Below, piece after piece: positions 4,188 to 39,883 of a stretch of DNA of 40,483 nt (positions within the stretch are counted from its first letter, which is position 1; every line of letters begins with the position of its first letter). The stretch spans positions 1 to 40,483 of the forward strand of contig JAIRYW010000046.1 of the NCBI GenBank assembly GCA_031267645.1, written 5' to 3'. Origin of the DNA: Propionibacteriaceae bacterium. Its GTDB lineage: Bacteria; Actinomycetota; Actinomycetes; Propionibacteriales; Propionibacteriaceae. A program made the translations under genes and the position numbers. The notes below the pieces were generated by a model that ran no database searches, was not told where the DNA came from, and saw nothing but the letters and a program-made list of their open reading frames with translations.

Positions 4188-4609
4188 GTCGAAGCCTTCC
4201 GCGGTGTGCGCCGCCGGGAAAGCGCCGATCATACACAGGCCAGAGCGAGGTCGCTACGACGGACGGTCCGGCGGGTCCAGCCGCCACGGTGACCGGCGCA
4301 CCATCGCGACATCCGCTCTTGAGTCCCATCCCGCCCGGCGCCTCCTTGCTCGGCCAGCATCGATCGATGCTTCCCCAGCGTAGCGCTGACCCTCGACGGC
4401 CGCGGCGCCGGTCGGGCCGGAGTATCGTCCTCAGCCGGTGGTCCGACGAGCTGCGGCCGGTCGGGCCACGGGGTGTAGGCTCGGTTAGGCCCGGTCGTGT
4501 CGCCTCACGGCCTGTTCCCGGTCGGGCCTGGATTGGGCTGCGGCAGCCGTACGGCTGAAGTCTCGAAGGCTTTGGGGTTGGTGGAAACGCGAGGATCGAA
4601 GGAGGTGTC
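4188..4609. other. Divergent control region between the two PAS genes
   Basis: These 422 bases hold no credible gene and must carry the promoters of both PAS genes. A perfect 16-base palindrome lies at 4356-4371. TAGGCT near 4479, of the actinobacterial TAnnnT -10 type, could serve the plus-strand gene, but no convincing -35 was found. A lone CTTGAGT at 4318-4324 is only half of a HAIR site. Confidence 0.6.
4356..4371. promoter_or_regulatory. Perfect 16-base palindrome, candidate operator
   Basis: AGCATCGATCGATGCT is its own reverse complement and lies about midway between the divergent starts at 4187 and 4610. A perfect dyad of this length in a shared promoter region is what a dimeric regulator controlling both genes would bind. 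No known regulator is assigned. It could also form a cruciform or be chance. Confidence 0.45.
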
Positions 4610-6127
4610 GTGAGCAGCGACACTTGGCTGGCGACGCCGTGGACCTCCGATTTGCCGGCGCCGCGGTCGGTGGACGACGCCTCGCCCCTGGCTTTCGTCT
4701 CGACCGACCATTCCGGGGTCATCAACGACTTGAACGACGTCTTCATCGAGTGGACTCGCTTCGCCCGTTCTCGCCTGGTCGGCACGCCCCACTCGGTGGT
4801 GCGCCATCCCGGCATGCCGGCGGGCCTGTTCCAACTCCTGTGGCAGCGCCTGGAGGCCGGTCAGCCGGTCTGCGCCTACCTCCAGAACCTGCCCGCCGAC
4901 GGCAATACGTACACTGCCCTGGTCACCATCAGCCCGACCGCCGACGGCTACTTGGCCGTCCAGCAGCGGCCCAGTCGCCCGGAGGCGGCCGAGGCCATGC
5001 AGAAGATCTACACCTCGGTCCGGGCGGTCGAATTCGACGCCCAGGACGACGGCCAGCCGGCCGAGGCCGTCACCAGCCAAGGGGCCGCTCTGCTGGTCGA
5101 TCTGATGCGGCAGCTCGGCTTCTCCTCCTTCGACGACTTCATGTGGACGGCCCTGCCCCAAGAAGTGGACGAGCACACCCGGCGCGCCCCCGGGCCGCTG
5201 ACGCCGGTCATGAACGAGTCCGGCCGGGCGGCCGACATCGTGGCCGCCAGTCGCGACCTGGCCCGCGAGCTGCTGCCCTGGTCGGAGCAGCAGGCCGAAC
5301 TGTTGCGCACCTGGGGCATCTTGTCCAAGACGCTGGTCTCCCTCAAGCCGACCATGGACGAGGCCAACCGGGTGGCGGACTCGCTCAACCTGGAGGTCGC
5401 CCAAGAGTCCAGCTTCCACGCCATGCGGTTGTCCATCACGGTCTGGGCCTCCATGGTGGCCGAGATCGAGAAGATCATCACCGACCTGCCGAACGACCTG
5501 CTCCGGCTGCGCCAAGCCTGCGCCGAGACCCGCTTCTGGATCGGATTGAGCCAGATCCACGCCGAGATGGTGGGGCAGGTGGCCTCCGGTCTGGCCGAGG
5601 TCGAAGCCTTGGAGGCCTCGCGGGCGGCTCTGTCCCGGCTCTGCCACACCCTCAGCCACGATTTCGACGAGCTGATCTGGCGGATGGAGAAGAATTCCAA
5701 TCTGGCCACCACGGTGGCCGAGCGGATCCAAAGCCTGCACGACTTGATGGTCATGCCGCGTGACTTGATCGAGAACTGGAAGTCCATGACGGCTGGGCGC
5801 GAGGACGAGTTCGTGACTCGTTTGCTGCCCGAGGTCGACAGTCAGTTGAGCCTGGCGGACCAGACCTTGACCTTGCTCCGCAACCTGGCCCAGCAGTGCC
5901 AGACCATCGCCGTGGTCCAGCCGATGGACACCGCCCGGCGCTGCGTGCGCCGGGTCCAGCGGGCCCTGGAGGACGATCCGACCCCTCCGGTCGTCCCCGA
6001 ACTCCAGCAGCCGGGCTGGCTGGACGACACCATGGCCGCCCCCGGCCTGCTCGACCTGTCGGCCGACGAGGCCGGCTCCCCCGTCACCTCCTGGGCCGCC
6101 ATCCTGGCCTCGCCCGACGCGCCCTAG
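4610..6127 (+). CDS. Aer-like PAS sensor protein with helical body (paralogue B)
   Basis: A 505-residue paralogue of the protein encoded at 2805-4187. The GTG start at 4610 has a near-perfect ribosome site (AAGGAGGT, 4599-4606). The PAS domain (~25-125) includes N42 (INDLNDVF), GTPHSVVRHPGMPAGLFQLLW with R65, H66 and W78, and the strand TYTALVTISPTADGYLAV. The Asp of the RHPDMP motif is Gly here (G68), so flavin binding may differ or be lost. A long helical region follows (~140-470) containing LLRLRQACAETRFWIGLSQI and LCHTLSHDFDELIW, both shared with the paralogue. The C-terminus is Pro/Ala-rich and probably disordered. There is no membrane segment and no recognised output domain. The divergent arrangement suggests an ancient duplication and joint control; the two may form a hetero-oligomer (inference). 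Confidence 0.75.
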   Translation: MSSDTWLATPWTSDLPAPRSVDDASPLAFVSTDHSGVINDLNDVFIEWTRFARSRLVGTPHSVVRHPGMPAGLFQLLWQRLEAGQPVCAYLQNLPADGNTYTALVTISPTADGYLAVQQRPSRPEAAEAMQKIYTSVRAVEFDAQDDGQPAEAVTSQGAALLVDLMRQLGFSSFDDFMWTALPQEVDEHTRRAPGPLTPVMNESGRAADIVAASRDLARELLPWSEQQAELLRTWGILSKTLVSLKPTMDEANRVADSLNLEVAQESSFHAMRLSITVWASMVAEIEKIITDLPNDLLRLRQACAETRFWIGLSQIHAEMVGQVASGLAEVEALEASRAALSRLCHTLSHDFDELIWRMEKNSNLATTVAERIQSLHDLMVMPRDLIENWKSMTAGREDEFVTRLLPEVDSQLSLADQTLTLLRNLAQQCQTIAVVQPMDTARRCVRRVQRALEDDPTPPVVPELQQPGWLDDTMAAPGLLDLSADEAGSPVTSWAAILASPDAP

Positions 6128-6287
6128 GGCTCGCGCCCGGCCTCAGCGGCCCGTCCGGCGCCGGTCTCGACCGAGCGTCGTCCGCCGGCGTCTGGGCCGA
6201 TGGCGAGTCAGCGGCTGAATCCACAACGGCGGAGTCTCGCGCGTGTCCGGGGTGGGCGGTGCGCGCGTCTCTTCCGCTGTGGGTAAA

Positions 6288-6308
6288 CTTGAGCCTAGTC
6301 AACTCAAC
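6288..6308 (+). promoter_or_regulatory. HAIR operator (HspR binding site) before clpB
   Basis: CTTGAGC-N7-ACTCAAC at 6288-6294 and 6302-6308 matches the HAIR consensus CTTGAGT-N7-ACTCAAG in 12 of 14 positions with the exact 7-base spacing. It starts 49 bases before the clpB ATG. A possible -10 (TAAACT, 6284-6289) overlaps its left edge, which fits repression by steric block. The HspR gene is in the same window. Confidence 0.88.
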
Positions 6309-6336
6309 TCATAGTTCAAGGAGTCCTCTCCCGGCC

Positions 6337-8919
<2,583 letters not shown>

Positions 8920-8929
8920 GCCGGGCCGC

Positions 8930-10387
8930 TCAGGCGAAGCGGAAGCTGGCCATCAAACGGTCGATGAAGTCGGTTCCGGCGCCGGGGGCCAGCGTGGCTT
9001 CGACGCGGTAGCGATTGGTCTCCCCCAGCAGTTCGACCATGACGGTGTCGCTGCTGGGGTAGGAGTCGATCAGGATCCGGCCTTGGACGGCGCCGGATTG
9101 GTAGCCCCAGACGGTCTGGGTCAGATAGATCGGGATGTCGCCCAAGGCGCCGTCGGCCGAGTCCTGATCGATCGGATAGGCCCAGACGCCCAGACAAGCC
9201 GGCAGACCATCCACCTCGGGCAGGGCGAAGCCGGCGAAACGGCCGCTCCAGTCCTCGGGCGGATCGATCTGGCAGGTCGTCTCATCCGGTCGGGCTTGAG
9301 CTGGGGGCACGAAGGACAGGTCCAGCAACTCGACCGCCGAACCGGCCTCGGCGGTGGCCCCGGAGCGGGGCAGCCGCGGCAGCGAACTGATCTCGGCTTG
9401 GGGGAAGAGGGCGATGTCGGTCCGACTCAAGCCGGACTGGCTGAGGGCGGTCAAAGACAGCTCGCCTTCAGCCGAGGTGGCCAGCGAGGCGATCAAGTAG
9501 ACGTCGGTGAACTCGTAACGCGACCCGGCGACGCCGTCCATGACGATGGGGCGGACGTAGCTCAGGTGGACCGTCAGATCCATCATCTCGCTGCTTTCAC
9601 CGCCGCGGATCGAGCTCAAGACGAGGCTGGTCACCAGGCTGCGCGGTTGGTCGAGTTGGTACGGGGCGGGCTGGGCCGGCCGCAGGCGGGACCGGTAGCG
9701 TTCCTCGGCTTGACGGGCTTGGGCCAAGCTGGCCTCGTCCCCCTGGGCCGGGAAGATGGACGCCTCCTGGGTCAGGCCGTCCTGGCGCCAGGAATGCCAG
9801 TCCTGGTCCACCGCCCAGGGGCCCAGCACCTGGCCCAACAGGTACGGGCTGTTCTCGCCCAGCAGATCGAGGAAGGTCGGGCCGTCAGCCTGGGTCGGCG
9901 CCCACCAGCCCGACGCGGTCACCCGGTCGGCCACCAGCCGCCGGTTCTGCTCGCTGTCGTCCCAAGCCAGCTCGGAGTCGACCCACTCGTTGACCAGGAA
10001 GTCGGCCAAAGCCACCCAGGCCCGGTTGACCGCCTCGTAATTCCAACTGGTGCCGTCGTCGGGTTGGTCGGCGCTGGGCTCGGGTTGGTTGCTCAGGATG
10101 TCGGCGCCGGGACGGATGGTCAAGGGCTTCCATTGGCCGTAGGCGTCGCTGCGGGGCTGGGCGGCCAGGGTGATGCTGTTGGCCTGCCAGACGTCTATGA
10201 CCGATTCCACGCTCAGGGTCAGGCCGGGGACGTTGAAGAAGGTGGCCGGCTCGGTCATCGGAGTCGGTCCGTCGTCGCCTGAGCAGGCCGTCAAGGCGGT
10301 GGCGGCGGCCAGAGCCAAGGCCGCTCCGCCGATTCGCCAGCCGGGTCGTCCGTCGCGTCGCCGGGCGGTCCGCAGCCTCAGCCTCAT
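8930..10387 (-). CDS. Putative secreted lipoprotein of unknown function
   Basis: A 485-residue protein I do not recognise. The N-terminus is a classic lipoprotein signal: arginine-rich start, a hydrophobic run (GGAALALAAATAL) and the lipobox LTAC with the acylated Cys at 35. The mature part is acidic and globular-looking with no membrane segments. It has many Trp and Tyr residues but no motif I can name. RBS AAAGG lies 9 bases before the ATG. It converges on clpB with a 10-base gap, leaving no room for a separate terminator. It is downstream of glgP on the same strand with a hairpin between, so it is probably its own transcript. Location on the outer face of the membrane is inferred from the lipobox. 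Confidence 0.8.
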   Translation of the reverse strand: MRLRLRTARRRDGRPGWRIGGAALALAAATALTACSGDDGPTPMTEPATFFNVPGLTLSVESVIDVWQANSITLAAQPRSDAYGQWKPLTIRPGADILSNQPEPSADQPDDGTSWNYEAVNRAWVALADFLVNEWVDSELAWDDSEQNRRLVADRVTASGWWAPTQADGPTFLDLLGENSPYLLGQVLGPWAVDQDWHSWRQDGLTQEASIFPAQGDEASLAQARQAEERYRSRLRPAQPAPYQLDQPRSLVTSLVLSSIRGGESSEMMDLTVHLSYVRPIVMDGVAGSRYEFTDVYLIASLATSAEGELSLTALSQSGLSRTDIALFPQAEISSLPRLPRSGATAEAGSAVELLDLSFVPPAQARPDETTCQIDPPEDWSGRFAGFALPEVDGLPACLGVWAYPIDQDSADGALGDIPIYLTQTVWGYQSGAVQGRILIDSYPSSDTVMVELLGETNRYRVEATLAPGAGTDFIDRLMASFRFA

Positions 10388-10438
10388 CTCGGTCGCCTTT
10401 CCCCGCTCGGTCCTGCCTCAGGGGGCGCCACGGCCCGG

Positions 10439-10459
10439 GCTGGGACGGTCGGTCCCAGC
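10439..10459 (-). terminator. Hairpin terminator after glgP
   Basis: An 8-bp stem GCTGGGAC / GTCCCAGC with a 5-base loop lies 51 bases past the glgP stop and before the lipoprotein start. No T-run follows, as is common for terminators in high-GC actinobacteria. Confidence 0.5.
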
Positions 10460-10509
10460 GGGCGGGCGGAGTCCCCCGGTGCCGCCACCGTACCACCGGG
10501 GTTGGGGGC

Positions 10510-13071
10510 TCACAGGGCGGAGACGTGCCAGATGCGGGCGATGTAGTCGCGCATGGCCCGGTCGGAGGAGAAATAGCCGCAACGGGCCAGGTTGAGCACG
10601 GCCGAGCGGGTCCAGGCCTCGGCGTCGGCGTAACGGGCGTCGACCTCGGCTTGGATCTGGAGGTACGAGCGGTAGTCGGCCAGGGCCATGAAACGGTCCT
10701 CGTACAACAGGTTGGACACCACCGGCTCGAAGACGCTGGGGTCGCCGTCGGAGAAGGCCCCGGAGGCGATCAGGTCGATGGCGGCCTTGAGGTCGGGGTC
10801 GGACTCGTAATAGGAGCTGGGCTGGTAACCCCGCTGCAGCAGATCTTCGACCTGGGGCTCGGTCAGGCCGAAGAGGAAGAAGTGGTCGTCGCCCACCAAG
10901 CGGCGGATCTCGACGTTGGCGCCGTCTTCGGTGCCGACCGTCAGAGCGCCGTTCAAGGCGAACTTCATATTGCCGGTGCCCGAGGCCTCTTTGCCGGCCA
11001 GGGAGATCTGCTCGGACAGGTCGGCGGCTGGAATCAGGCGCTCGGCCAGGGTGACGTTGTAGTTGGCCGGGAAGGCCACGGCCAGCACATTGTTGACCCG
11101 GGGGTCGGAGTTGACGGTCTTGGCCACGGCGTTGATCAGATGGATGATCCGCTTCGCCATCTGATAGCCCGGCGCGGCCTTGGCCCCGAAGACGAAGGTG
11201 CGGGGCGTGACCTGGTCGGGCCGCAGCTGGCCGGAGGTCAGCTGGCCGTACAAGGTCACGATGTGGAGCAGCTTGAGGGACTGGCGTTTGTACTCGTGCA
11301 AGCGCTTGACCATGACGTCGAGCAGGGTGTCCCGGGGCAGCTCGATGCCGTCCCGACGCCGTAGGATCCGGTTCAAACGAACCTTGTTCTGGCGTTTGAT
11401 CTTGCGGAAGGCGGCTCGGAAATCGGGGTCCTCGGCTTGGAACTGGAGGTCTTGCAGCAGTTCCAGGTCGGTCAGCCAGCCGACGCCGATGGCGTCCGTG
11501 ATGAGAGCGGCCAGGTCGGGGTTGGCCAGTCTGATGAAACGCCGGGGCGTGACCCCGTTGGTGACGTTGGTGAAACGGTGCGGCCACAGCTCGGAGAAAT
11601 CAGGCAAGACCTTGTCGCGCAGCAGTTGGGAGTGCAATTCGGCCACCCCGTTGACCTTGACCGCCGTGGCCGTGGCCAGATGGGCCATCCGGATCGAGCG
11701 TTCGGGGTAGTCCGACACGATCGACATCCGGCGCACCCGTAACTCGTCTTGGGGCCAGCGTTGGCGCACCTGGGCGCAGAACTGGTCGTTGATCCGGCAG
11801 ATGATCTCCAGATGGCGCGGCAGCAGGTGCCCCATCAGGTCGAGCGGCCAGGTCTCCAGGGCCTCCGGCAGCAGGGTGTGGCAGGTGTAGTTGAAACAAC
11901 CCTGGGTGATCTCCCAAGCCTCCTCCCAGGGCAGGGCGTGGACGTCGACCAGCAGCCGCATCAGCTCCGGGATGGCGATCACCGGGTGGGTGTCGTTGAG
12001 TTGGAAGGTCAAGCGGTCGGGCAGCTGATGGAGATCGAAGTCGTCGCCCAGGACGGACAGACAGTCACGCAGGGAACAGGCCACGAAGAAGTATTGCTGC
12101 TGCAGGCGCAGCTCCCGGCCCTGCGGGGTGGAGTCCTCCGGGTAGAGCACCTTGGTGATGTTCTCGGCGAAGGTCTGGGCCCGCACCGCCGCGGCGTAGT
12201 CGCCGGAGTTGAAGATGCCCAGGTCGAAGGCTTTGGTGGCGCGGGCGCTCCACAGCCGTAGCGTGTTGGTCCAGCCGTTCTCGTAGCCGGGCACCATGTA
12301 GTTGTACGGCACCCCCAGCACATTCCAACTCGGCTTCCAACAGGCCCGGTCGACCCCGTCGGCGTCGATCCGGTGCTCGACCTGTCCGCCGAAGTCGACC
12401 TGGACGGCGTGCTCGGGGTGGGGGAACTCCCAGGGCGAGCCCAGGGCCAGCCAGGTGTCGGGCTGCTCGACCTGGCGCCCGTCCACGAAGGTCTGGCGGA
12501 AGATGCCGTACTCGTAGCGGATGCCGTAGCCCACGCTGGGCACTCGCATGGTGGCCAGGGAGTCGACGAAACAAGCCGCCAGCCGGCCCAGGCCGCCGTT
12601 GCCCAGCCCCGGCTCGACCTCCTGGTCGCGCAGGGTGGACAGGCTCAGCCCGCAGGCCGCCATGGCCTCCTCCGCCACCTCGTCCAGATCGGTCGCCAGC
12701 AGGGCGTTGTCGAGCTGGCGGCCCAGCAGGTATTCAGCCGACAGGTAGGCCACCACTTTGGACTTCGACTCCCTGACCCGGCGCAGCGAGTCCAGCCAAC
12801 GCCCCATCATGTAATGGCGCACGGTCCGGGCCAGGGCCAGGTACTGGTCGTTGACGGTGGAGGTCGACAGCTGGACCCCCTGGCCGGTGTTGAGCTCGTG
12901 CAGGAATTCGCGGATGAACCCGTCCACGGTGTGGGCCGGCGCCGCCACCGGTCCCTGCGCCATGGGGGAAGTGGGCGGGAACTCCGGCCCCAACTGGCGG
13001 GTGGCGTTCTGCAGTTCGTCGTTCGGAGTCAGGGGAGAGCTGGCCTGGCCCGGTCTGGTCGTCTCGGTCAC
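10510..13071 (-). CDS. glgP: Glycogen (alpha-glucan) phosphorylase
   Basis: An 853-residue GT35 phosphorylase that releases glucose-1-phosphate from alpha-1,4-glucans such as glycogen. The diagnostic pyridoxal-phosphate segment KEASGTGNMKFALNGA is present, with the cofactor lysine at K703. VAYLSAEYLLGR, EVEPGLGNGGLGRLAACFVDS and TFQLNDTHP are further family blocks, and the phosphate/active-site region TNGVTPRRF is intact. Length fits the ~800-residue bacterial class plus a ~40-residue N-terminal extension. The GTG start at 13071 has no clear ribosome site; an ATG at residue 37 is an alternative. No other glycogen genes are adjacent. Cytosolic role in mobilising stored glycogen is known for the family. 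Confidence 0.95.
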   Translation of the reverse strand: MTETTRPGQASSPLTPNDELQNATRQLGPEFPPTSPMAQGPVAAPAHTVDGFIREFLHELNTGQGVQLSTSTVNDQYLALARTVRHYMMGRWLDSLRRVRESKSKVVAYLSAEYLLGRQLDNALLATDLDEVAEEAMAACGLSLSTLRDQEVEPGLGNGGLGRLAACFVDSLATMRVPSVGYGIRYEYGIFRQTFVDGRQVEQPDTWLALGSPWEFPHPEHAVQVDFGGQVEHRIDADGVDRACWKPSWNVLGVPYNYMVPGYENGWTNTLRLWSARATKAFDLGIFNSGDYAAAVRAQTFAENITKVLYPEDSTPQGRELRLQQQYFFVACSLRDCLSVLGDDFDLHQLPDRLTFQLNDTHPVIAIPELMRLLVDVHALPWEEAWEITQGCFNYTCHTLLPEALETWPLDLMGHLLPRHLEIICRINDQFCAQVRQRWPQDELRVRRMSIVSDYPERSIRMAHLATATAVKVNGVAELHSQLLRDKVLPDFSELWPHRFTNVTNGVTPRRFIRLANPDLAALITDAIGVGWLTDLELLQDLQFQAEDPDFRAAFRKIKRQNKVRLNRILRRRDGIELPRDTLLDVMVKRLHEYKRQSLKLLHIVTLYGQLTSGQLRPDQVTPRTFVFGAKAAPGYQMAKRIIHLINAVAKTVNSDPRVNNVLAVAFPANYNVTLAERLIPAADLSEQISLAGKEASGTGNMKFALNGALTVGTEDGANVEIRRLVGDDHFFLFGLTEPQVEDLLQRGYQPSSYYESDPDLKAAIDLIASGAFSDGDPSVFEPVVSNLLYEDRFMALADYRSYLQIQAEVDARYADAEAWTRSAVLNLARCGYFSSDRAMRDYIARIWHVSAL

Positions 13072-23815: not shown

Positions 23816-25318
23816 ATGCCGATTGAGGCCATGGTCGTCGTCGTAGTGATCACGGCCTTGGTGTTCGACTTCACCAATGGCTTCCATGATTCGGCCAACG
23901 CCATGGCGACCGCCGTCGCCACTGGGGCGTACAAGCCGAAGCGGGCGGTCCTGTTGGCCGCCGTCATGAACTTGGTCGGGGCCTGCCTGTCGACCGAAGT
24001 GGCCCTCACCATCTCCCACGGCATCGTGGACGACTCTTTGGTGACGGTCGAGATGGTCTTCGCCGGGCTGGTCGGCGCCATCCTGTGGAATCTGGTGACC
24101 TGGCTGCTGGGCCTGCCGTCGAGTTCCTCCCACGCCATGTTCGGCGGGCTGGTCGGCGCCGTCGTGGTGATGGCCGGCGTCAGCGGCATCCATCCGGGCG
24201 TCATCCTGTCCAAGATCCTGCTGCCGGCCCTGGTCGCTCCGGTGGTGGCCGGGCTGGCCTCGTACGGCGCCACCAAGATCGCCTATCGCAGCTTCCGCGA
24301 CTCCAGCAAGGGCTCCAAGAAGCGCTTCCGGACCGGTCAACGCGCCTCCTCTCTGATGGTGGCCTTGGCCCACGGCACCTCGGACGGCCAGAAGACCATG
24401 GGCGTCATCACCTTGGTGCTGGTGGCCGGTGGCATGCAGGCCCCAGGCACCGCCCCCCACTGGTGGGTGATCGGAGCGGCCGGGCTGGCCATCGCGGCCG
24501 GCACCTACTCCGGTGGCTGGCGCATCATGCGCACCATGGGCAAGGGCATGGCCGACATCGAAGGGCCGCAGGGCTTCGCCGCCGAGACCTCGGCCATGGC
24601 CGCCATCCTGGCCTCCTCCCACTTCGGCTTCGGGCTGTCCACCACCCACGTCGTCTCCGGCGCCGTCATGGGCACCGGGCTGGGCCGCACCCCGGACCAG
24701 GTGCGCTGGAACACGGCCGGCCGCATGGCGCTGGGTTGGCTCCTGACCCTGCCGGCCTCCGCTCTGGTCGGAGCCGGCGCCGCCCTGTTGGCCCATCAAG
24801 GGGTCTGGGGCTTCGGTTTGGTGGTGGCCATCCTGGTGGCCGCCGCTGGCGCCATCAAGATCATCAGCCAGCGCAACCACGTCTCACCCGACAATGTCAA
24901 CGACGATCACGAGGTCCGGGTCTTCGGCCGGGCCGACAAGGCTGCGCCGGTCACCACCCAAGGCGCCCTGGCCACGCCCTTGGCCCCCTCCCTGCCCAAG
25001 GGCATCACCGCCGAACACCCCCTGGCCGCCACCCCCTTGGTCTTGACTCGGTTGAAGCAGCCCAAACGTAAGAAAGTCAAGGGCAAGCACGTCCCACTGG
25101 ACCAGGACCCCTTGCCTGGCCTGGCCCCGCCGCCCGACCCGATCGAGCGATCGGACGACCTCCCGCCGGAACCGGCCGCCCCGCCCCGCGACCTGGCGGC
25201 GGACCCGGCCCCGTCGCCTTCGAACTCGACCGGCCCGGCCTCCGCCGCGGTCCCCCCGGCGTCCGATCTGACGGTCAAAGCCGAACGGACCGGGGCCGAC
25301 CTGGCGAGGGAGGACTGA
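23816..25318 (+). CDS. Inorganic phosphate transporter, PiT family
   Basis: A 500-residue low-affinity phosphate (metal-phosphate/H+) symporter. The ATG at 23816 follows TGAGG at 6 bases; a GTG 12 bases further up is an alternative. The PiT repeat signatures are both present: FDFTNGFHDSANAM (17-30) and, in the second half, SSHFGFGLSTTHVVSGAVMG, plus LPSSSSHAMFGGLVGA. About ten membrane helices are predicted to residue ~350. The remaining ~150 residues form an unusual hydrophilic tail, first basic (KQPKRKKVKGKH), then Pro/Asp/Ser-rich, presumably cytoplasmic. A 73-residue membrane protein gene starts 2 bases after its stop and is surely co-expressed. No PhoU-like gene accompanies it. Confidence 0.93.
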   Translation: MPIEAMVVVVVITALVFDFTNGFHDSANAMATAVATGAYKPKRAVLLAAVMNLVGACLSTEVALTISHGIVDDSLVTVEMVFAGLVGAILWNLVTWLLGLPSSSSHAMFGGLVGAVVVMAGVSGIHPGVILSKILLPALVAPVVAGLASYGATKIAYRSFRDSSKGSKKRFRTGQRASSLMVALAHGTSDGQKTMGVITLVLVAGGMQAPGTAPHWWVIGAAGLAIAAGTYSGGWRIMRTMGKGMADIEGPQGFAAETSAMAAILASSHFGFGLSTTHVVSGAVMGTGLGRTPDQVRWNTAGRMALGWLLTLPASALVGAGAALLAHQGVWGFGLVVAILVAAAGAIKIISQRNHVSPDNVNDDHEVRVFGRADKAAPVTTQGALATPLAPSLPKGITAEHPLAATPLVLTRLKQPKRKKVKGKHVPLDQDPLPGLAPPPDPIERSDDLPPEPAAPPRDLAADPAPSPSNSTGPASAAVPPASDLTVKAERTGADLARED

Positions 25319-25320
25319 CC

Positions 25321-25542
25321 ATGGGCATCGACTGGTGGGCTCTGGTCCAAGTCTCGGTCGTCACCATCGTCGGCGCCATGGCCATCGTCTCGTTGATGTC
25401 CTTGGCCAACTGGTTGCTGGTCCCCCCCGACGGCGCCTCCCAGGCCGTCGGCTGGCGCCGTTTCAGCGGCTACGGCGTGATCGGGCTGATGGGATTGATC
25501 GTGGCCTTCGGCATCTATTTGCTGGTGCCGTACTTCCACTGA
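25321..25542 (+). CDS. Small two-helix membrane protein, partner of PiT
   Basis: A 73-residue protein with two hydrophobic helices (~8-33 and ~47-71) joined by a short loop, VPPDGASQAVGWRRFSG. Its ATG is 2 bases after the transporter stop, inside a tight operon, and the reading frame is clean with typical high-GC codon use. I do not recognise a family. The context suggests an accessory or stabilising subunit of the phosphate transporter. Confidence 0.75.
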   Translation: MGIDWWALVQVSVVTIVGAMAIVSLMSLANWLLVPPDGASQAVGWRRFSGYGVIGLMGLIVAFGIYLLVPYFH

Positions 25543-25919
25543 GATAGGTCGTCTGTTTGGTGAGACAGGTTTTAGACGGCTGGTGGCTCGGAGCGGTGGA
25601 GCTAGACCGTGTCAAGCGCTCATAGGGCGTGGCATATAGGAAACGGGCCATTTGAGTGGAAGTCTTAGTCAAAAGAGAATCACGCACATGTAATTATTTG
25701 GCGTATTCGTGGAGGACGGCCTCAGTGGCACCAGATCTGGTCAAATGGAAACCAAGGCGCAGACTTGGCAAAGGGCTCAGCCCTCGATTAGGGCGGTCGC
25801 GATGACTGGGGTATCGTGGTCGATCTATTGGCGCCGTGCCAATATGCCGCATCCGGCCTTGATATGTGTCCCCGGATCGGGCGCGTCGAAAAGATGTCCC
25901 TGGAGTCAGGGGGTGACCA
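25543..25919. other. AT-richer gap at the left edge of the island
   Basis: These 377 bases contain no credible gene. Sampled 60-base lines fall to about 48-53% G+C (25621-25740), against ~65-70% in neighbouring genes. Near its start, GAGATAGGT...GTCTG and GAGACAGGT...AGACGG look like imperfect repeats and could be a decayed mobile-element end, though no terminal repeat pair can be shown. The promoter of the following gene must be here. Confidence 0.45.
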
Positions 25920-27635
25920 GTGTCTAGAGTGAAGCGTTCCTCAGGACAGATGGTGTCGGCCCCATCTGAGGCCGATCTGCCGCTGGCTGCCCGCTTACCG
26001 GTCCCCGATTACCCCAGTCAGACGCCGGGTCTCAGCCCCTTCCCCACTCCGGCCGAGGTGCAACGCCGCCAGGCGGGGTACGCTCTGATCGATCTCTGGA
26101 TGCAGTTCCTCAACCCCCTCCTCGACACTTTCGAGTCAGGCCGGAACGCGCTCGATCGGGGTTTGGCCGACGTGCTATTACTGGGTGCCCGGCGGGCTCT
26201 GGCGGTTTACCACCTCTTCCGCTTGGCCGGGCTGGACGAGCACCGACGCGGCACGGTTCTGTCCGATCGTTTCCTGGCTTTGGAAAAAGCAGGAGATTGG
26301 GATCGGCACACCAAGGCCTGGCTGTTCGACGACTGCTCACAATACGGCCGAGCCAAAGAACGGCTGGAAGACGCCGCCCGCTGCCTGTGGGGCCAGGACA
26401 GTGTGGTGGACGGGTGGGCCCACGTGGCGCTGCAGGTGCCTCCGACGTCGCGCCGGCCAGCGCGCAGTACGGCGGACGGCCAGGCCCGAGCGGCCTCAGA
26501 GGACACCGGCAGCGACTGGGGTCGCGCTCTGCACGGCCAGTACGCCCTGGCCTTCGCTCGGGCCGGGGTGCCGTTGTTCGCCGACTTCCCGGTCTCGACC
26601 CAGTTCACCGCCGACGTCTCGACTCTGGCTAAGCTGCTGAATCAGACTCGGTCGGGCCAACGCTTCGACGCCGTCGATGTCACCAACACGGCGGTGGCCA
26701 ACCAGGGCGGGCTGTTCTATTCCCTGTTCCCCCGCCAGGACTTTGTTAGTGGGTTCGCCCAGGAAATCGGACCAGCCGCCCAATTGGTCTCGCTGGTCAA
26801 GCTGCGGGTCTTCTCCTTCGCCGACGGCCGCAGCACCTACCGGGTGCGGGTGGTGCCGATCGTGCTGACTAAAGAGCTGGATTCTGAACTGGTGCTCGAC
26901 TGGCTGCGTCGGATCGGTCGGCCGGTGGCAGAGGAAGTGGAGACCACCTCTTCGGACGAGCGAGAGAACGCGCGGAAGCTGCGGGACAGACAAGCCGCCG
27001 CCGGTTTGGACCTGATCGGTTTCATGCTGGCCCGCCGTTTCATGGACTATGTCAACCAGCGGGTCCCCGATCTGTTCGACGGGCAGCTCCTAAAAGAGGA
27101 CCCCGAATTCACGGCTGTGGCCATGAGCCCGACGATCGACCGAATGGCTTCGGACTGTTTCGACAGTTTGAAAGAACTAGCCAGTGGCGCGACAGAAGTT
27201 CTGCCGTCGGCCAAGTTCGACCTAGCCGAGGGCTGGGAATCGGGCCGGGACATGCTCACCGTCGGGGACCGAAGCAAACGGAGCGGGAACGACGACCCGC
27301 CCGAGTTCTTGCAGGTGGTGCTCGACGCTCTGCCAAAGGCGGTGGGGGAGTTCGAAGACTTCGTCACTCTGACGCAGTTGCAGGAGGAGCTGAAGCGCCT
27401 CGGTCGATCCTTCACCATCTACGATCTGTCGGTCGCTCTGGACATTCTGAACGACCTCGGTTTCGCCGTTCCGGTGTTGACCTGTCGGGATGGCCAGGCC
27501 GTGCGCGGCTACCGCCAGGGCGAACAGGCCGGTCGGATCAAGACCCGGATGCCAGGGGTGTACTCGGCCTACGATGAGAGCTATTGGAATCATGATGAAG
27601 AGCCCATCTTCGAGTGGTTGGGATTCGACCGGTAG
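25920..27635 (+). CDS. Phosphoribosyltransferase-like protein with C-terminal winged-helix-like region
   Basis: A 571-residue protein with no family I can name. The GTG start has AGGGGGT 5 bases upstream. Residues ~80-175 resemble a type I phosphoribosyltransferase core: ADVLLLGARRALAVYHLF, then VLSDRFLAL, then AWLFDDCSQYGRAKERL (133-149), which aligns with the PRPP-loop pattern of hydrophobic strand, acidic pair (D137, D138) and glycine. The usual Thr-Gly pair is Tyr-Gly here. The centre (~205-440) contains LVSLVKLRVFSF and YRVRVVPIVLT, strand-rich and unassigned. Residues ~465-535 look like a winged helix (FVTLTQLQEELKRLGRSFTIYDLSVAL in position, then a DGQAVRGYRQG wing). There is no membrane segment or signal. 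PRTase-like proteins of this size occur in bacterial conflict systems. It is followed, 153 bases on, by the RES fusion gene and shares its lower GC. Confidence 0.5.
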   Translation: MSRVKRSSGQMVSAPSEADLPLAARLPVPDYPSQTPGLSPFPTPAEVQRRQAGYALIDLWMQFLNPLLDTFESGRNALDRGLADVLLLGARRALAVYHLFRLAGLDEHRRGTVLSDRFLALEKAGDWDRHTKAWLFDDCSQYGRAKERLEDAARCLWGQDSVVDGWAHVALQVPPTSRRPARSTADGQARAASEDTGSDWGRALHGQYALAFARAGVPLFADFPVSTQFTADVSTLAKLLNQTRSGQRFDAVDVTNTAVANQGGLFYSLFPRQDFVSGFAQEIGPAAQLVSLVKLRVFSFADGRSTYRVRVVPIVLTKELDSELVLDWLRRIGRPVAEEVETTSSDERENARKLRDRQAAAGLDLIGFMLARRFMDYVNQRVPDLFDGQLLKEDPEFTAVAMSPTIDRMASDCFDSLKELASGATEVLPSAKFDLAEGWESGRDMLTVGDRSKRSGNDDPPEFLQVVLDALPKAVGEFEDFVTLTQLQEELKRLGRSFTIYDLSVALDILNDLGFAVPVLTCRDGQAVRGYRQGEQAGRIKTRMPGVYSAYDESYWNHDEEPIFEWLGFDR

Positions 27636-27668
27636 TCACCCACTGGGTGCGCTGTCCGGTGCTGGTCG

Positions 27669-27689
27669 TTGACGGGCAGGATGGGTCAA
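27669..27689. promoter_or_regulatory. Dyad in front of the RES-fusion gene
   Basis: TTGAC (27669-27673) and GTCAA (27685-27689) form an inverted repeat with an 11-base centre in the 153-base gap between the two island genes, 100 bases before the RES-fusion start. A small dyad CACCCA-C-TGGGTG lies just upstream, around 27640. Candidate operator for self-control, or chance. Confidence 0.25.
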
Positions 27690-27788
27690 TTCGGTTCGAA
27701 CACCTGAGCGTGACGGAACGGTGGCGCGGTCATCTGGCAAGATAACCGTCGTGCTCTCCGTACTCCCAACGCGCGGCTGGTTCGGGCC

Positions 27789-29519
27789 ATGACAGCCCCC
27801 GCGATTTCCACTCGGCAGGCTTTCGACGACGTGCGCTGGGCGACGCGCCTGATCAAGCGCGTCGCCGACATCATCCAGACGATAGCCGTCATAGGCAGTG
27901 GATTGGCCAACCAACAGCCCGATCCTGCGTTAGGTCGGAAGCTGGAAGAACAGGTGTATGAACTTTGGCGGCGCGCCCAGCTGATGAGCGTCCAACCCAC
28001 CAACGGGACCGGGAATCTGGTCATTCCAGCCCCCTGGGTGCGGTCCTACTGGGTTTTGCCGCTGTGCCGTCTGATGGCGGCGGTGGATACTCTGGCCAAG
28101 CTGACTGCGGCCTACGCCTCCGCGCGAGGCGTCCCAGTCCGAATGAGGCAACTCAAAACCGCTGATCTGCCTGTGCTAAATGGCACTCTTATCCCGTACA
28201 ACAGTGTCAAGCGCATGGAGGAACGCGTCCGCAGTCGACTCTTCACCGAGCAAGCCCTCGATCTGGTGGGTGTGCTGTCGGTTTGGGGTCGTCTGGGGAT
28301 GCCGAGGTTCCTTTCGTTGCATGCTCAGGTGGAGACAGCTTTGGGGGGTGCCAGCCAGATTCTTGGCAGCGGGGATCTGGGCCAGAAAGATGATCCCGTG
28401 TTGGCCTTGGACCAGAACTGTCTGGATGCTTCGCAAACAGCGGATCTCCTATTCGGTCGGGACACTGAGCAAAACCGAGATCGTCTGAAGTGGCTAGCCG
28501 ATCATTTGGCCTTGATCGCCGTTCTGGACTATGACGGGTCAAGTCTCCGATTTCCCCGCTTCCAGTTCGCGCCCAGGATCGGACTCAAACCGGAGATCGC
28601 CCACGTCCTCGACCTATTGCGTAAGCGATCAGGGCCGGCTGATCCGCATCCCCTGGACGGTTGGCCTTTAGCCATTTGGGTCTACGCCAACACAGAATCA
28701 GCGCCTCTCAGCCCTGGCCTCATCGGTCAGATCCTGAGCGAAGTCGGTCTTTCGCGCGATGCCTCTACGCCGGCTGAAGCCGACCAGTTGAGTTTCCGGG
28801 CCATCCAGGACGGACCTCAGATTGGGAAAATGATGGGGTGGCCGAGACGGATGGGATGGCTGTTGCGGCTGCTGAAACGTCGGCGACTGCGAAGGCGGAA
28901 TTATTATCGGGTCGGCTCCAACGAGAAGAAGGAATACATCGACCACCCCTACCGTTACTCGCGCCACGACGACCCGGCGCCCAATGGCCGTTACGACCCG
29001 GCTAACAGCCTGGAACAGGGAACTCTCTATTTGGCCGAGGACGCACTCGGCTGCTGGGCCGAGGTGTTGGATCGCCAGCTGGTCGTGACCTTGAGCTATT
29101 TGGCCACTCGGGCCCTGCACGTCATCGAGGTGGGCCCGGACGCCAAGGGCCAGACCCCGAAGCTGCTTGACCTGACGGACCAGCACAGCCGCCTCAACGC
29201 TGCCTCTCGGAACGAGAGCCAGGCAGTAGCCCAGGTGGCCGCCTCCAATCACTTTGACGGCATCCTCTACAGCTTGCGTACCCTGCCCACTCATCTCGGT
29301 CTGGCCGTCTTCGGCCTGCGCGGACCCAGGGAGATCATCACCGGTCCGGCGGCCGAGCCTTCTCATCCTCTGCGGGGTGTCAAGGGGATCTGGACCAAAC
29401 TTGAGACCATCAACTGGTACGACAGCAAAGACCTGTGGCGATATTTGGAAATGGCCCGCTCTGGCCGCTCACCGGCCTTCCCGGTCATCTTGCGGCGATT
29501 GCCTGATCTGCCGGTTTGA
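27789..29519 (+). CDS. RES-domain protein fused to an MbcA/Xre antitoxin-like module
   Basis: A 576-residue protein in three parts. Residues 1-200 are helical and unrecognised. Residues ~210-305 resemble the MbcA/Xre-type antitoxins of mycobacterial RES systems: SQTADLLFGRDTEQNRDRL (helix-turn-helix-like), then LIAVLDYDGSSLRFPRFQF, then PEIAHVLDLLRK and GWPLAIWVYAN. A strongly basic stretch (353-370) follows. Residues ~370-512 are a RES domain: YYRVG (R374), GRYDP (400-404), GTLYLAED with CWAEV (E425), and FDGILYSLR (S495), i.e. the Arg, Glu and Ser that name the family, then LGLAVFGLRG. RES toxins such as MbcT degrade NAD+. A 64-residue tail follows. The ATG has no clear ribosome site. Codon use and GC are below the neighbours. 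Whether the fused antitoxin-like part restrains the toxin within one chain is inference. Confidence 0.65.
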   Translation: MTAPAISTRQAFDDVRWATRLIKRVADIIQTIAVIGSGLANQQPDPALGRKLEEQVYELWRRAQLMSVQPTNGTGNLVIPAPWVRSYWVLPLCRLMAAVDTLAKLTAAYASARGVPVRMRQLKTADLPVLNGTLIPYNSVKRMEERVRSRLFTEQALDLVGVLSVWGRLGMPRFLSLHAQVETALGGASQILGSGDLGQKDDPVLALDQNCLDASQTADLLFGRDTEQNRDRLKWLADHLALIAVLDYDGSSLRFPRFQFAPRIGLKPEIAHVLDLLRKRSGPADPHPLDGWPLAIWVYANTESAPLSPGLIGQILSEVGLSRDASTPAEADQLSFRAIQDGPQIGKMMGWPRRMGWLLRLLKRRRLRRRNYYRVGSNEKKEYIDHPYRYSRHDDPAPNGRYDPANSLEQGTLYLAEDALGCWAEVLDRQLVVTLSYLATRALHVIEVGPDAKGQTPKLLDLTDQHSRLNAASRNESQAVAQVAASNHFDGILYSLRTLPTHLGLAVFGLRGPREIITGPAAEPSHPLRGVKGIWTKLETINWYDSKDLWRYLEMARSGRSPAFPVILRRLPDLPV

Positions 29520-29621
29520 GCCGCTGAGCCGGTGGACTGGCCCCGGCGGCCATCCTTCAAACCACGGCTCGGCTGCAGGCTGCGGCCTGGCGCAGAATCC
29601 AAGGGCTCGACTCGGCGGTGC

Positions 29622-29661
29622 CCGAAGAAGCTTCGGCCGCGCCAACCCAGCTAGGGCTGGG
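29622..29661 (+). terminator. Two small hairpins after the RES-fusion gene
   Basis: CCGAAG-AAG-CTTCGG (29622-29636) and CCCAGC-TAGG-GCTGGG (29646-29661) lie about 100 bases past the stop. Each has a perfect 6-bp stem. Together they may end the island transcript before the mut operon. The 279 bases from 29520 to 29798 otherwise show no gene and no cobalamin riboswitch. Confidence 0.4.
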
Positions 29662-29798
29662 CGACGAGGGGAGCGGCGGGGCCGGGCGCAGCCCCTGCGG
29701 CGGCGGTGGAGCGGTGTGAGGACCGGCCCGGCGAGGCGATAGGTTTGACCTCGGAATCCATGTATTGCCTCGATCACTCGATGGGGAGGAGTCGTTCG

Positions 29799-31661
29799 AT
29801 GTCGGACGAGAAAATGGTGTTGGCGGGCGACTTCACTCAGCCCACAACACAAGATTGGGACCGCGAGGTCCTCAAGATCTTCAATCGCAAGCGGCCACCG
29901 GGCTCCGAGCTGACGTTGGAGCAGGCCATGAAGCGTCTGACCACGGTCCAGGTCGACGGTTTGGTGATCGACCCGCTGTACACCCGGCCGGATGATCAGG
30001 CCATCGGCCAGCCGGGCCAGATGCCCTTCACCCGGGGTTCCGCCGGGAGAGGCCCCAGCCTCGGTTGGAGCGTCGTCGGCCTGCACGAGGACCCCGACCC
30101 AGCGCGGTCCAACCGGGCCGTCTTGGAGGATTTGGCGGCCGGAGCCGACGGCCTTTGGCTGCGGGTCGACCCGGACGCCATCCAACCGGCCGACCTGGCC
30201 GGAGCCCTGGCCGGCGTGCTGCCGGAAGCGGCTTCGATCAGCCTGTCCGGCGCGGCCGACCAAGCCGGGGCCGCCCAAGCGCTGCTCGACTTCTGGGCCG
30301 CCTCCGGCCAGCCGGGCCAAGTGGCGGGCAATCTCGGCATCGACCCCCTGGGGGCTGCCGCTCTGACCGGTCAGGCGCCGAACCTGAGGCTCCTGGCCGA
30401 GTGGGTGGCCAAGGCTCAGGGCTGGGGCCGAGTGCGCGCCCTGGTGGTCGACACGCTGGTCTATGACAACGCCGGAGCCGGCGACGTCGAGCAGCTGGCC
30501 TACGCCGTCGCCAGCGGCCTCGAATACGTCCGGGCCCTGGCCGCCGCCGGGGTCGACGCCGCCACCGCCTTCGACCAGATCGCCTTCCGGGTGGCGGCCA
30601 GCGCCGATCAGTTCCCCACCATCGCCCGGTTGCGCGCTCTGCGTCGGCTGTGGGCCCGCGTGGGCGAGGTCTTGGGTGTGCCCGAGGCCCAGCGCGGAGC
30701 GGTCCAACACGCGGTCACCAGCTGGCGCAACATCTCGCGCGACGACCCCTGGGTCAACTTGCTGCGGGGCACCATCGCGGCCTTCGCGGCCGCCGCCGGC
30801 GGGGCCGAGTTCATCACCGTGCTGCCGCATGACACCGCCTACGGTCTGCCGACCAAGTTCTCCCGCCGCCTGGCCCGTAACATCCAATTGCTGGTGGGCG
30901 AGGAGTCGCACCTGGGCAAGGTCAAGGATCCGGCCGGCGGGGCCTGGTTCGTGGAGTCGATCACCGACCAGTTGGCCCGCAAAGCCTGGGCCGTGGTGCA
31001 AGAGTTGGAGGCGGCCGGCGGTTTCGCCGTCGGGCTGGCCTCCGGCGCCGTGGCCCAGCAGATCGGGCGGGTGACGGCCGAGCGGGACAAGCGCCTGGCC
31101 AGCCGCAAGCTGCCCTTGACGGGTGTCTCGATGTTCCCGAAGCAGGACGAGGAGCCCTTGGCCGACTTCGTGCCGCGGCCGCCCCGCCCCGACTGGGCCG
31201 GGCTCGAGCCCCGGCGCGACAGCGAGGTCTTCGAGGCCCTGCGCGACCGTTCGACCGCCCACGCCCGCGCCACCGGCGCCAAGCCGACCGTGCTGCTGGC
31301 CCTGTTGGGGGCCCGCCGCGACTTCGGGCCGCGCGAGCAGTTCACCACCAACCTGCTGTTGGTGGCCGGCCTCGACTACCGGCCCTTGGAAGGCCCCAGC
31401 CCGGCTGAGATCGTGGCTGCCGCCCAGGAACTCGGTTCCAGCGTCGTCGTCCTGGCCTCTTCCGGCAAGGTCTACGCCGATCAAGCGGAAGCGGCCGCCG
31501 CGGCTCTCAAACAAGCCGGCCAACCATACGTCTACATCGCCGGCCGCAAGGCCGAGGCCAGCCCTGAAGGGCAGGCCTTGATCGACGCCGAGTTCTACGA
31601 CGGCATCGACGTCGTCGCTTTCCTGACTGAGACCCTGGACCGTTTGGGGGTGGCCAAGTGA
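29799..31661 (+). CDS. mutA: Methylmalonyl-CoA mutase, small (beta) subunit
   Basis: A 620-residue MutA. The start at 29799 has GGAGGAG 7 bases upstream; the frame stays open upstream without such a site. It has the mutase fold: an N-terminal barrel ([19 protein letters not shown], then [51 protein letters not shown]) and a C-terminal Rossmann domain (~460-620). The DxHxxG cobalamin ligand motif is absent, as expected, because only the large subunit binds B12 and substrate. With MutB it converts succinyl-CoA to (R)-methylmalonyl-CoA, a core step of propionate fermentation, or the reverse in propionate use. Its stop overlaps the mutB start as GTGA, so translation is coupled 1:1. Confidence 0.95.
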
Positions 31662-33823
31662 CCACGCAGATTCCGCGTTTCGACTCCATCGATTTGGGCC
31701 CCGGCCGGCCCGATCCCGCCGCTTTGGCCCCGGATCTGGGCCTGGCCTGGGAGACGCCCGAACACATCGAGGTGCCGCCCCTGTACACCCAGCAGGACTT
31801 GGACGGGCTGGACTTCCTCCAGACCTTCCCCGGCCTGCCGCCCTACCTGCGCGGCCCCTACGCCACCATGTACGTCAACCAGCCCTGGACCATTCGGCAA
31901 TACGCCGGCTTCTCCACGGCCGAGGATTCGAACGCCTTCTACCGGCGCAACCTGGCGGCCGGCCAGAAGGGCCTGTCCATCGCTTTCGACCTGGCCACCC
32001 ACCGCGGTTACGACTCGGATCATCCCCGGGTCACCGGCGACGTCGGCATGGCCGGCGTGGCGGTCGATTCAATCTTGGACATGCGTCAGTTGTTCGACGG
32101 CATCCCGTTGGACCAGATGTCGGTCTCGATGACCATGAACGGCGCCGTGTTGCCCATCCTGGCCCTCTACATCGTGGCGGCCGAGGAGCAGGGCGTGGCC
32201 CTGGAGCAACTCAACGGGACGATCCAGAACGACATCTTGAAAGAGTTCATGGTTCGTAACACCTACATCTACCCGCCGACCCCGAGCATGCGGATCATCT
32301 CCGAGATCTTCGCTTTCACCTCGCGCAACATGCCGAAGTTCAATTCGATCTCGATCTCCGGGTACCACATGCAGGAGGCCGGCGCGACGGCCGACATCGA
32401 GATGGCGTACACCTTGGCCGACGGCGTCGAGTACATCCGGGCCGGCGAGTCGGTCGGCCTCAAGGTGGACGACTTCGCGCCCCGCTTGAGCTTCTTCTGG
32501 GGCATCGGCATGAACTTCTTCATGGAGGTGGCCAAGCTGCGCGCCGCCCGCCTGCTGTGGGCTCGGCTGGTGCGCCAGTTCAACCCCTCCAACCCGAAGT
32601 CGATGAGCTTGCGCACCCACTCCCAGACCTCGGGCTGGTCGTTGACGGCGCAGGACGTCTACAACAACGTCGGCCGGACTTGTTTGGAGGCGATGGCGGC
32701 CACCCAGGGGCACACCCAGTCGCTCCACACCAACTCCTTGGACGAGGCCATCGCCTTGCCGACCGACTTCTCGGCCCGCATCGCGCGTAACACTCAGTTG
32801 TTCTTGCAACAGGAGTCCGGCACCTGCCGCTCGGTCGATCCCTGGGCCGGTTCGGCCTACGTCGAGCGTCTGACCTACGATCTGGCCCGTCAGGGTTGGG
32901 AGCACATCCAAGAGGTCGAACGGGCTGGCGGCATGGCCAAGGCCATCGAGGCCGGCATCCCCAAGTTACGCATCGAGGAGGCGGCCGCCCGCACCCAGGC
33001 CCGGATCGACTCGGGCCAGCAGGTCTTGGTCGGCGTCAACAAGTATCTGATCGACGACGACGTCCTGCCGGAAGTGCTCAAGGTCGACAACCGGGCCGTG
33101 CGCGAGGGGCAGATCGCCAAGTTGCAGCGGCTCAAGGCCGAGCGCGACGAGACGGCCTGCCAGACCGCTTTGGACCGGCTGACCTGGGCGGCGGGGAACC
33201 CGGATCCGACGGACCCGGAGCGCAACCTGCTCAAGCTGTCGGTCGAAGCCGGCCGGGCCAAGGCCACGGTGGGTGAGATCTCGGACGCCTTGGAGCAGGT
33301 CTTCGGCCGCTACACGGCCCAGATCCGGACTATCTCGGGGGTCTACGCCTCTGAGGTCGGCGCCTCGCCCGAGGTCGACCAGGCTCGTCGGTTGGTCGAG
33401 CGGTTCGCTGAGGAGACCGGCCGTCGCCCGCGTATCTTGATCGCCAAGATGGGCCAGGACGGCCACGACCGAGGCCAGAAAGTGATCGCCACGGCCTACG
33501 CCGACCTGGGCATGGACGTCGACGTCGGTCCGATGTTCCAGACGCCCGAGGAGACCGCTCGTCAGGCCATCGACGCCGACGTCCACGTGGTCGGGGTGTC
33601 CTCTCTGGCGGCCGGCCATCTGACCTTGGTGCCGGCCCTGCGCCAGGAGCTGGACAAGCTGGGCGGCCAGGACATCATGATCGTGGTCGGAGGGGTCATC
33701 CCGCCGGACGACTTCGAGGAGTTGTACGCCGACGGCGCCGCCGCCATCTATCCGCCGGGCACGGTCATCGCGGAGGCGGCGGTCGATCTGCTGAACAAGC
33801 TCGAGGCCACAGTTCAGCGGTGA
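31658..33823 (+). CDS. mutB: Methylmalonyl-CoA mutase, large (alpha) subunit
   Basis: A 721-residue catalytic subunit using adenosylcobalamin. The GTG start overlaps the mutA stop by 4 bases. The barrel domain shows [76 protein letters not shown] and [19 protein letters not shown], all family blocks with the CoA channel residues. The B12 domain (~585-721) has DGHDRG (601-606) with the cobalt ligand H603, then [11 protein letters not shown] and [10 protein letters not shown], completing the DxHxxG...SxL...GG signature. Length matches the Propionibacterium enzyme (~728). It is followed, again with a GTGA overlap, by the chaperone gene meaB. Confidence 0.98.

Positions 33824-37648: not shown

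Positions 37649-37652
<4 letters not shown>
36471..37652 (+). CDS. metB: Cystathionine gamma-synthase
   Basis: A 393-residue PLP enzyme that joins O-acylhomoserine with cysteine to make cystathionine, the first step of transsulfuration to methionine. It matches E. coli MetB closely at VPPIYLSTNYAF, FDYSRSNNPTR, LAPHDCYGGTWRL, VETPSNPLLRITDIS, DNTFLSPALQNPL, GFGAMVSFD and FSLAESLGGVESLVCHP. The PLP lysine is K207 in STTKYINGHSDVVGG. This MetB-like version of the motifs argues for synthase over the related lyases, although actinobacterial members can show gamma-lyase activity as well. AGAGAGG precedes the ATG. Its stop overlaps the recQ start. Confidence 0.9.

Positions 37653-39863
<2,211 letters not shown>

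Positions 39864-39883
<20 letters not shown>

What the first reader, a model, noticed from the sequence alone, without database searches (positions are those of the whole stretch)
27789..29519. A single-chain RES toxin fused to an MbcA/Xre antitoxin-like module
The C-terminal ~140 residues carry the RES triad (R374, E425, S495) and GTLYLAED. Just before it, residues 210-305 match the pattern of the separate MbcA/Xre antitoxins: a helix-turn-helix-like run, LRFPRFQF, PEIAHVLDLL and a GWPLAIWV block. Known RES systems (for example MbcTA of M. tuberculosis) encode toxin and antitoxin as two genes. A fusion with an extra 200-residue N-terminal domain implies control inside one polypeptide, perhaps released by a signal. 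A bacteriophage-sensing NADase is one possibility.
Basis: partly seen in the sequence, partly recalled or inferred. Interest (0 to 1): 0.85.

Follow-up and report, generated by a model that had tools for sequence, protein, structure and literature searches.

The report
Toxin fused to an antitoxin-like module
A bacterium carries a small two-gene cassette in which an NAD-attacking type of toxin is joined in one chain to a piece resembling its usual antitoxin, beside a second protein that may control it, so it looks like an unusual bacterial growth-arrest switch whose function is still untested.

Summary
The gene at 27789-29519 encodes a 576-aa protein with a real RES domain (PF08808, residues 373-514, E 1.4e-8). 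The antitoxin-like block (about 210-320) is supported by profile comparison with eight stand-alone antitoxins beside RES toxins of the same family of bacteria (97%; 82% with the shared motif masked; two other regions of the protein 0.1%), firmly for its helix-turn-helix and [FY]PxFQF part, weakly for the rest. One triad residue is wrong: S495 is not the RES serine. Leu496 is at that place; 8 of 8 close relatives have Leu/Met there, against Ser in 20 of 24 canonical toxins.

It is not a lone fusion. The upstream ORF (25920-27635) has no Pfam, NCBIfam, PADLOC or PHROGs hit, looks phosphoribosyltransferase-like (weak evidence), and lies beside or fused to RES in 9 of the 14 loci found, one from a Spirochaetia contig. 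The two genes sit in a low-GC islet of 4.1 kb absent from the relative most alike in the neighbouring gene.

Best reading: a mobile two-gene toxin/defence cassette, a new variant of RES-Xre systems.

The parts
25544..29684 (.). Islet of 4141 bp that holds both genes; 114 bp stand in its place in genome G184
   Evidence: blastn of the window against G184: 25302-25543 and 29685-32322 are collinear, 114 bp between them; GC 62.4% against 68.1% and 70.0% of the flanks
25920..27635 (+). Partner gene 'UP', 571 aa from a GTG, PRTase-like N-terminal part, no family hit
   Evidence: Beside or fused to RES in 9 of 14 loci; 0 hits in Pfam, PADLOC, NCBIfam, PHROGs
26169..26393 (+). PRTase-like stretch of UP (residues 84-158) with invariant R91, Y97, D116-R117, D137-D138, G143
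   Evidence: Invariant in 7 of 7 rows; PF00156 touches relative L034 at E 3.5e-4, below cut-off; motif-length profile match 35-56%
27789..29519 (+). RES fusion gene, 576 aa
27789..28388 (+). N-terminal domain, residues 1-200, no relative known; limits approximate
   Evidence: No Pfam hit there; aligned with little identity in the relatives; no match to the antitoxin profile (0.1%)
28416..28748 (+). Antitoxin-like block, residues about 210-320: HTH-like run, [FY]PxFQF, GWPLAIWV
   Evidence: hhalign 97.2%, masked 82.1% against eight RES-linked antitoxins
28551..28568 (+). FPRFQF motif, residues 255-260
   Evidence: P256, F258, Q259, F260 invariant in the five rows of A1
28905..29330 (+). RES domain, residues 373-514
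   Evidence: PF08808 E 1.4e-8
29274..29300 (+). Leu496 at the RES serine column and Gly504 at a second column often Asn in canonical toxins

Best explanation
A horizontally acquired two-gene toxin/defence cassette. Gene 2 is a RES-type effector of the ADP-ribosyltransferase superfamily that carries, in the same chain, a module related to the separate HTH antitoxin that precedes RES toxins in ordinary pairs; gene 1 is a PRTase-like partner. Shown here: domain make-up, conservation of the pair, the islet. Inferred: at rest the built-in antitoxin-like module, with the partner, keeps the RES pocket closed; a nucleotide or PRPP change, or a phage-made signal sensed by the partner, releases it; the RES domain then breaks NAD+ or a related nucleotide and stops growth.
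For: RES domain with Arg, Arg, Tyr and Glu kept in every family row that covers them. Block related to RES antitoxins: 97.2%, masked 82.1%, other regions 0.1%; an HMM of the fusion family finds the genome's own stand-alone antitoxin (residues 72-124) at E 0.0029. Antitoxin lies upstream of toxin on the same strand in 8 of 8 canonical loci, the order seen inside the fusion. Partner beside or fused to RES in 9 of 14 loci, one being a single 1509-aa ORF, one on a Spirochaetia contig. Islet absent in G184 and low in GC. A RES-Xre pair, NatRT, works by NAD+ phosphorolysis, with the antitoxin's last helix in the toxin's pocket (PMC11535050, passages).
Against: The part of the block after the motif is not recognised on its own (2.5%, E 0.019). 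Ser is lost in 8 of 8 close relatives, so NAD+ phosphorolysis may not be the reaction. G188 has the pair without a recognisable FQF block. In G031:C142 the two genes are tail to tail, so not one operon there. No known defence gene was recognised beside it, apart from RecQ matches to DpdF models. No structure, no experiment.
Confidence: 0.5

Rival explanations
1. UP is the real antitoxin or immunity protein, and the HTH-like block in the RES chain is only a scaffold or DNA-binding remnant.
For: UP accompanies every one of the 9 RES loci of this kind; G188 has UP and RES but no recognisable FQF block.
Against: UP relatives also occur without RES, in 5 of 14 loci, one fused to a phosphorylase domain, which suits a regulator or sensor better than a RES-specific antitoxin; the block is kept in 8 of 9 RES loci.
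Confidence: 0.25
2. An ordinary RES toxin-antitoxin pair whose two genes fused; the upstream gene is an unrelated neighbour.
For: The same genome has an ordinary pair, and antitoxin-then-toxin order would give this fusion.
Against: UP is beside or fused to RES in two phyla by record title; the family is a branch of its own (90/88; 99/93 without G188) and the tree does not place it among toxins with FQF antitoxins, though it does not settle the sister group.
Confidence: 0.12
3. A housekeeping or metabolic regulator, or a decayed enzyme: the changed pocket (Leu, Gly) marks a RES fold that binds a nucleotide but no longer cuts NAD+.
For: Ser and Asn columns changed in 8 of 8 rows of the clade.
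Against: Arg, Arg, Tyr and Glu are kept in all covering rows; 4 of 24 canonical toxins also lack Ser; patchy spread, 11 of 391 genomes of the order, and an islet do not suit a housekeeping role.
Confidence: 0.13

Closest known systems
RES-Xre type II toxin-antitoxin modules (MbcTA, NatRT, RES-XrePp, GndRX)
   Same: RES domain; related HTH antitoxin-like module; antitoxin-then-toxin order
   Different: One chain instead of two proteins; extra N-terminal domain; RES serine replaced by Leu/Met; PRTase-like partner gene
Linked RES+Xre proteins noted in two eukaryote-annotated sequences (PMC12457610, passage)
   Same: RES and Xre in one protein
HEPN/RES-NTD1 fusions of RES (PMC3710099, passage)
   Same: RES with a helical N-terminal domain
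   Different: The Pfam scan gives no hit in residues 1-372 of the window protein at E up to 10
PRTase-bearing defence systems: retron type III-A1 PRTase/WH and DprA-PRTase (PMC12548924, PMC9122126, passages)
   Same: A PRTase-like protein paired with another gene
   Different: UP has no PADLOC hit; the neighbour here is a RES fusion; no Rfam family is matched in the window

Membership tests
RES domain (PF08808) | Profile match over the curated cut-off | tested here: met
   Window protein 35.4 bits against 23.2. Relatives: over cut-off in G183, G031:C142, G188 and Spirochaetia; below it in G185, G031:C2 and G025
RES domain (PF08808) | Arg-Glu-Ser triad | tested here: not met
   R374 and E425 present; the Ser column holds Leu496. 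4 of 24 canonical toxins also lack Ser, so the triad is not strict
RES-Xre toxin-antitoxin module | Toxin and antitoxin as two adjacent genes | tested here: not met
   One ORF
RES-Xre toxin-antitoxin module | HTH antitoxin sequence | tested here: met
   97.2%, masked 82.1%
RES-Xre toxin-antitoxin module | Xre/MbcA/ParS toxin-binding part | tested here: inconclusive
   Part after the motif alone 2.5%; with the motif 93.4%; the stand-alone antitoxins reach MbcA (6fkg_C) only at E 0.032
RES-Xre toxin-antitoxin module | NAD+ phosphorolysis and neutralisation | not testable with these tools
   Needs an assay
Type I phosphoribosyltransferases (PF00156), for UP | Profile match and PRPP motif | tested here: inconclusive
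   0 of 6 members of A2 hit; L034 E 3.5e-4 and L035 E 0.29, both below cut-off; motif-length match of 25-28 columns, 35-56%
Known anti-phage systems in PADLOC | Match to a PADLOC model | tested here: not met
   0 families for both proteins at E up to 1

The most novel reading that the evidence does not exclude
UP-like proteins are a family of PRTase-type regulators paired or fused with exchangeable nucleotide-attacking effectors (RES here, a nucleoside phosphorylase in G403, perhaps others), and the RES branch has a rebuilt active site (Ser to Leu, Asn to Gly) with a reaction other than NAD+ phosphorolysis, held in check by an antitoxin captured in the same chain.
Probability: 0.22. Interest if true: 0.78.

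Novelty: new variant of a known kind. Interest (0 to 1): 0.58.

Why it matters
It would show a toxin that absorbed its own antitoxin and handed control to a second, PRTase-like protein: a route from an addiction pair to an inducible cell-arrest system. The co-conserved partner, also found fused to a phosphorylase domain, gives a concrete and testable family to look for.

Tried and rejected
Searches that led nowhere: P0001 in genome contigs and plasmids; A1 and A2 in viral contigs; UP in plasmids and phages; the Spirochaetia RES protein in plasmids. PDB sequence searches with P0001, A2 and A5 gave rows with E 0.1 or worse only; among those for A2 is a purine PRTase at E 0.57. Tree of 32 RES domains: no clear source of the fusion. 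PADLOC DpdF matches of the gene at 37649-39883 (best 4.4e-266) are best read as RecQ, TIGR01389 over cut-off. Rfam: 0 matches. Islet ends: no repeat within either end except one 76% inverted pair; longest exact word shared by the two ends 10 bases direct, 7 inverted, so no att site or duplication was seen. A cyclase-like C-terminus in L033 and L034 is my reading of one motif; not tested.

Limits of the controls. The eight antitoxins were picked, and the family block was centred, by the same motif pattern, which favours a match; hence the masked run. Of 25 RES loci scanned, 7 held such an antitoxin; L016 is the eighth. Of the 37 RES rows, 24 are the canonical set, 6 are this system, 7 were not used. 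G188 was left out of the block profile for lack of the motif. The Asn column has N in only 12 of 24 canonical rows (A 8, P 2, V 2), some perhaps misaligned. In one search the first Arg column is not covered in G185, Spirochaetia and G158; A5 shows that Arg in G185 and Spirochaetia. The PRTase yardstick had badly cut rows (L073 was empty); one search mended the cutting from recorded match places and gave 37.2% (8 rows) and 55.8% (14 rows). Its shuffles: at most 15.9 for 8 rows; for 14 rows one of 40 scored 130 through a degenerate 3-column match, so that control is not clean. Dropped before counting 14 UP loci: G169 (19.5 bits against P0001) and G1028 (22.7 bits).

Full report
What is there. 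The ORF at 27789-29519 (+) has 576 codons from an ATG. Pfam finds one family at E up to 10, RES (PF08808, residues 373-514, E 1.4e-8). PADLOC (E up to 1), NCBIfam (E up to 0.01) and PHROGs (E up to 0.1) give nothing.

The antitoxin-like block. The same genome has a second RES gene with a separate 174-aa HTH-type antitoxin upstream (L016). Eight such antitoxins (7 of 25 loci scanned, plus L016) were made into a profile and compared with the block of eight fusion relatives: 97.2%, E 3.8e-11, 96 columns; the N-terminal domain and the RES part gave 0.1% each. With the shared motif masked in both: 82.1%, E 1e-5. HTH part alone 73.9%, E 2.8e-5; part after the motif alone 2.5%, E 0.019; 60 column shuffles at most 15.0 against 69.5; without the two most HTH-like rows 96.9%; window alone 85.5%. 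HTH plus motif 97.4%, motif plus the rest 93.4%. An HMM of the fusion family (A1) finds the L016 antitoxin, residues 72-124, at E 0.0029. The antitoxin profile reaches PDB 2kfs at E 8.2e-6 (that this is Rv2175c is recalled) and MbcA, 6fkg_C, at E 0.032. In Pfam the eight antitoxins touch several HTH families: AbiEi_4 (4 of 8, best 0.0054), HTH_17 (2 of 8, 1.5e-4), MarR_2 (1 of 8, 1.4e-4), Xre-like-HTH (1 of 8, 0.0028), Xre-MbcA-ParS middle domain (2 of 8, 0.05). So the HTH and FQF part is well supported as antitoxin-related, the toxin-binding part only probably so. In 8 of 8 canonical loci the antitoxin is upstream of the toxin on the same strand.

The active site. Against 24 canonical RES domains the two Arg, the Tyr and the Glu are kept in each family row that covers them (6 of 6, 8 of 8, 8 of 8 and 9 of 9). 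The Ser column has S in 20 of 24 canonical toxins (A 2, C 1, P 1), L or M in 8 of 8 rows of this clade, and S in the divergent G188. A second column has N in 12 of 24 canonical toxins, G in 8 of 8 of the clade, and N in G188 (alignments). NatT's conserved active-site residues include S184 and N193 (PMC11535050, passage); that these are the two columns is inference.

The partner. The 571-aa ORF at 25920-27635 has homologues beside the RES homologues of G183, G185 and G158, is in one 1509-aa ORF with RES in G031:C2, and lies tail to tail with RES in G031:C142. Its profile was found in 11 of 391 genomes of the order, in 1 of 396 of a phylum sample, the window's own, and in 2 of 247 of the phylum of the Spirochaetia genome, one of the two too weak to count. 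The Spirochaetia contig JARKOY010000097.1 has both ORFs, overlapping by ten bases. G188 and G025 add two more. In all 14 loci: 9 with RES, 5 without (G263, G259, G150, G403, G189). Eight of the nine RES proteins hold the FQF block; G188 does not. Of the five without RES, G403 is fused to a phosphorylase-superfamily domain (PF01048 E 1.9e-13) and G150 overlaps a metallo-beta-lactamase-fold gene (PF00753 E 2.1e-8). Evidence that UP is PRTase-like: invariant R91, D116, R117, D137, D138, G143 in 7 of 7 rows, a below-cut-off PF00156 match in L034 (E 3.5e-4), and a match of 25-28 columns around the PRPP motif (35-56%, E 1e-4 to 4e-4). Against: 0 of 6 members of A2 have a Pfam hit, and one of 40 shuffles in the 14-row control gave a degenerate high score. 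I treat it as a lead.

The islet. Six same-genus regions around the neighbouring gene at 29706-31661 (the mutA label is recalled) were compared. In G184, whose copy of that protein is 89% identical, the flanks are collinear and 114 bp stand in place of window 25544-29684. G186 and G182 also lack it, with about 0.26 and 0.62 kb between the matching ends. G175 has about 2.8 kb of other DNA there. In G185 and G187 the region is rearranged. The islet has 62.4% GC against 68.1% and 70.0% for the flanks; third-position GC is 0.78 (UP) and 0.71 (RES) against 0.87-0.93 in six neighbours. This suits gain by transfer in the window's lineage. No flanking repeats were found.

Evolution. On a tree of 32 RES domains the eight family rows form one branch (support 90/88), seven without G188 at 99/93; its sister group is not settled.

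Reading. Shown: a conserved gene pair, an antitoxin-related module in the RES chain, a changed RES pocket, a mobile-looking islet. Inferred: that the chain attacks NAD+ or another nucleotide and stops growth, that the module and UP restrain it, that UP senses a nucleotide or a phage.

Literature. Seven searches of the held open-access library. I saw passages, not whole texts, of PMC9503650, PMC12457610, PMC2701414, PMC12548924, PMC9122126, PMC13092281, PMC3710099, PMC11535050 and PMC7291234. PMC12457610 notes two eukaryote-annotated proteins with RES and Xre linked, so such a fusion as such is not new. No passage that I saw describes a RES fusion with a PRTase-like partner; preprints and most subscription papers are not in the library, so I do not claim that it is absent from print.

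Noticed in passing
L016 (G000:C29) 7317-8470, minus strand: The same genome holds a canonical antitoxin (174 aa) and RES toxin (248 aa, PF08808 E 5.6e-13) with overlapping ORFs.
   Followed up: yes
L036 (G403) 7991-12019: A UP-like N-terminus fused to a phosphorylase-superfamily domain (PF01048, E 1.9e-13), followed by a DUF4365 gene.
   Followed up: partly
L033 (G263) 7895-11371 and L034 (G259) 5862-9239: UP-like proteins of 1158 and 1125 aa with a shared long C-terminal part that has no Pfam hit that names it and a 'WYD(I/L)xDSKGN' stretch.
   Followed up: no
L035 (G150) 6624-9597: UP-like gene overlapping a metallo-beta-lactamase-fold gene (PF00753 E 2.1e-8).
   Followed up: no
L038 (G189) 2820-8928: UP-like gene next to a 653-aa ORF without family and a KAP-family NTPase gene (PF07693 E 1.1e-32).
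   Followed up: no
L127 (G175:C1) about 9797-12597: About 2.8 kb of other DNA at the place where the window has the islet; perhaps an insertion hotspot.
   Followed up: no
L012 (G158:C89) 111-1823: The RES fusion gene is in two ORF pieces there (388 and 147 aa), by decay or by assembly error; the pieces were studied apart.
   Followed up: no
L032 (G025:C116) 6303-11022: UP and RES parts lie in two overlapping ORFs (477 and 1109 aa) where G031:C2 has one ORF of 1509 aa.
   Followed up: no
window 37649-39883: RecQ-type helicase that matches several PADLOC DpdF models, a likely false lead in defence scans.
   Followed up: partly
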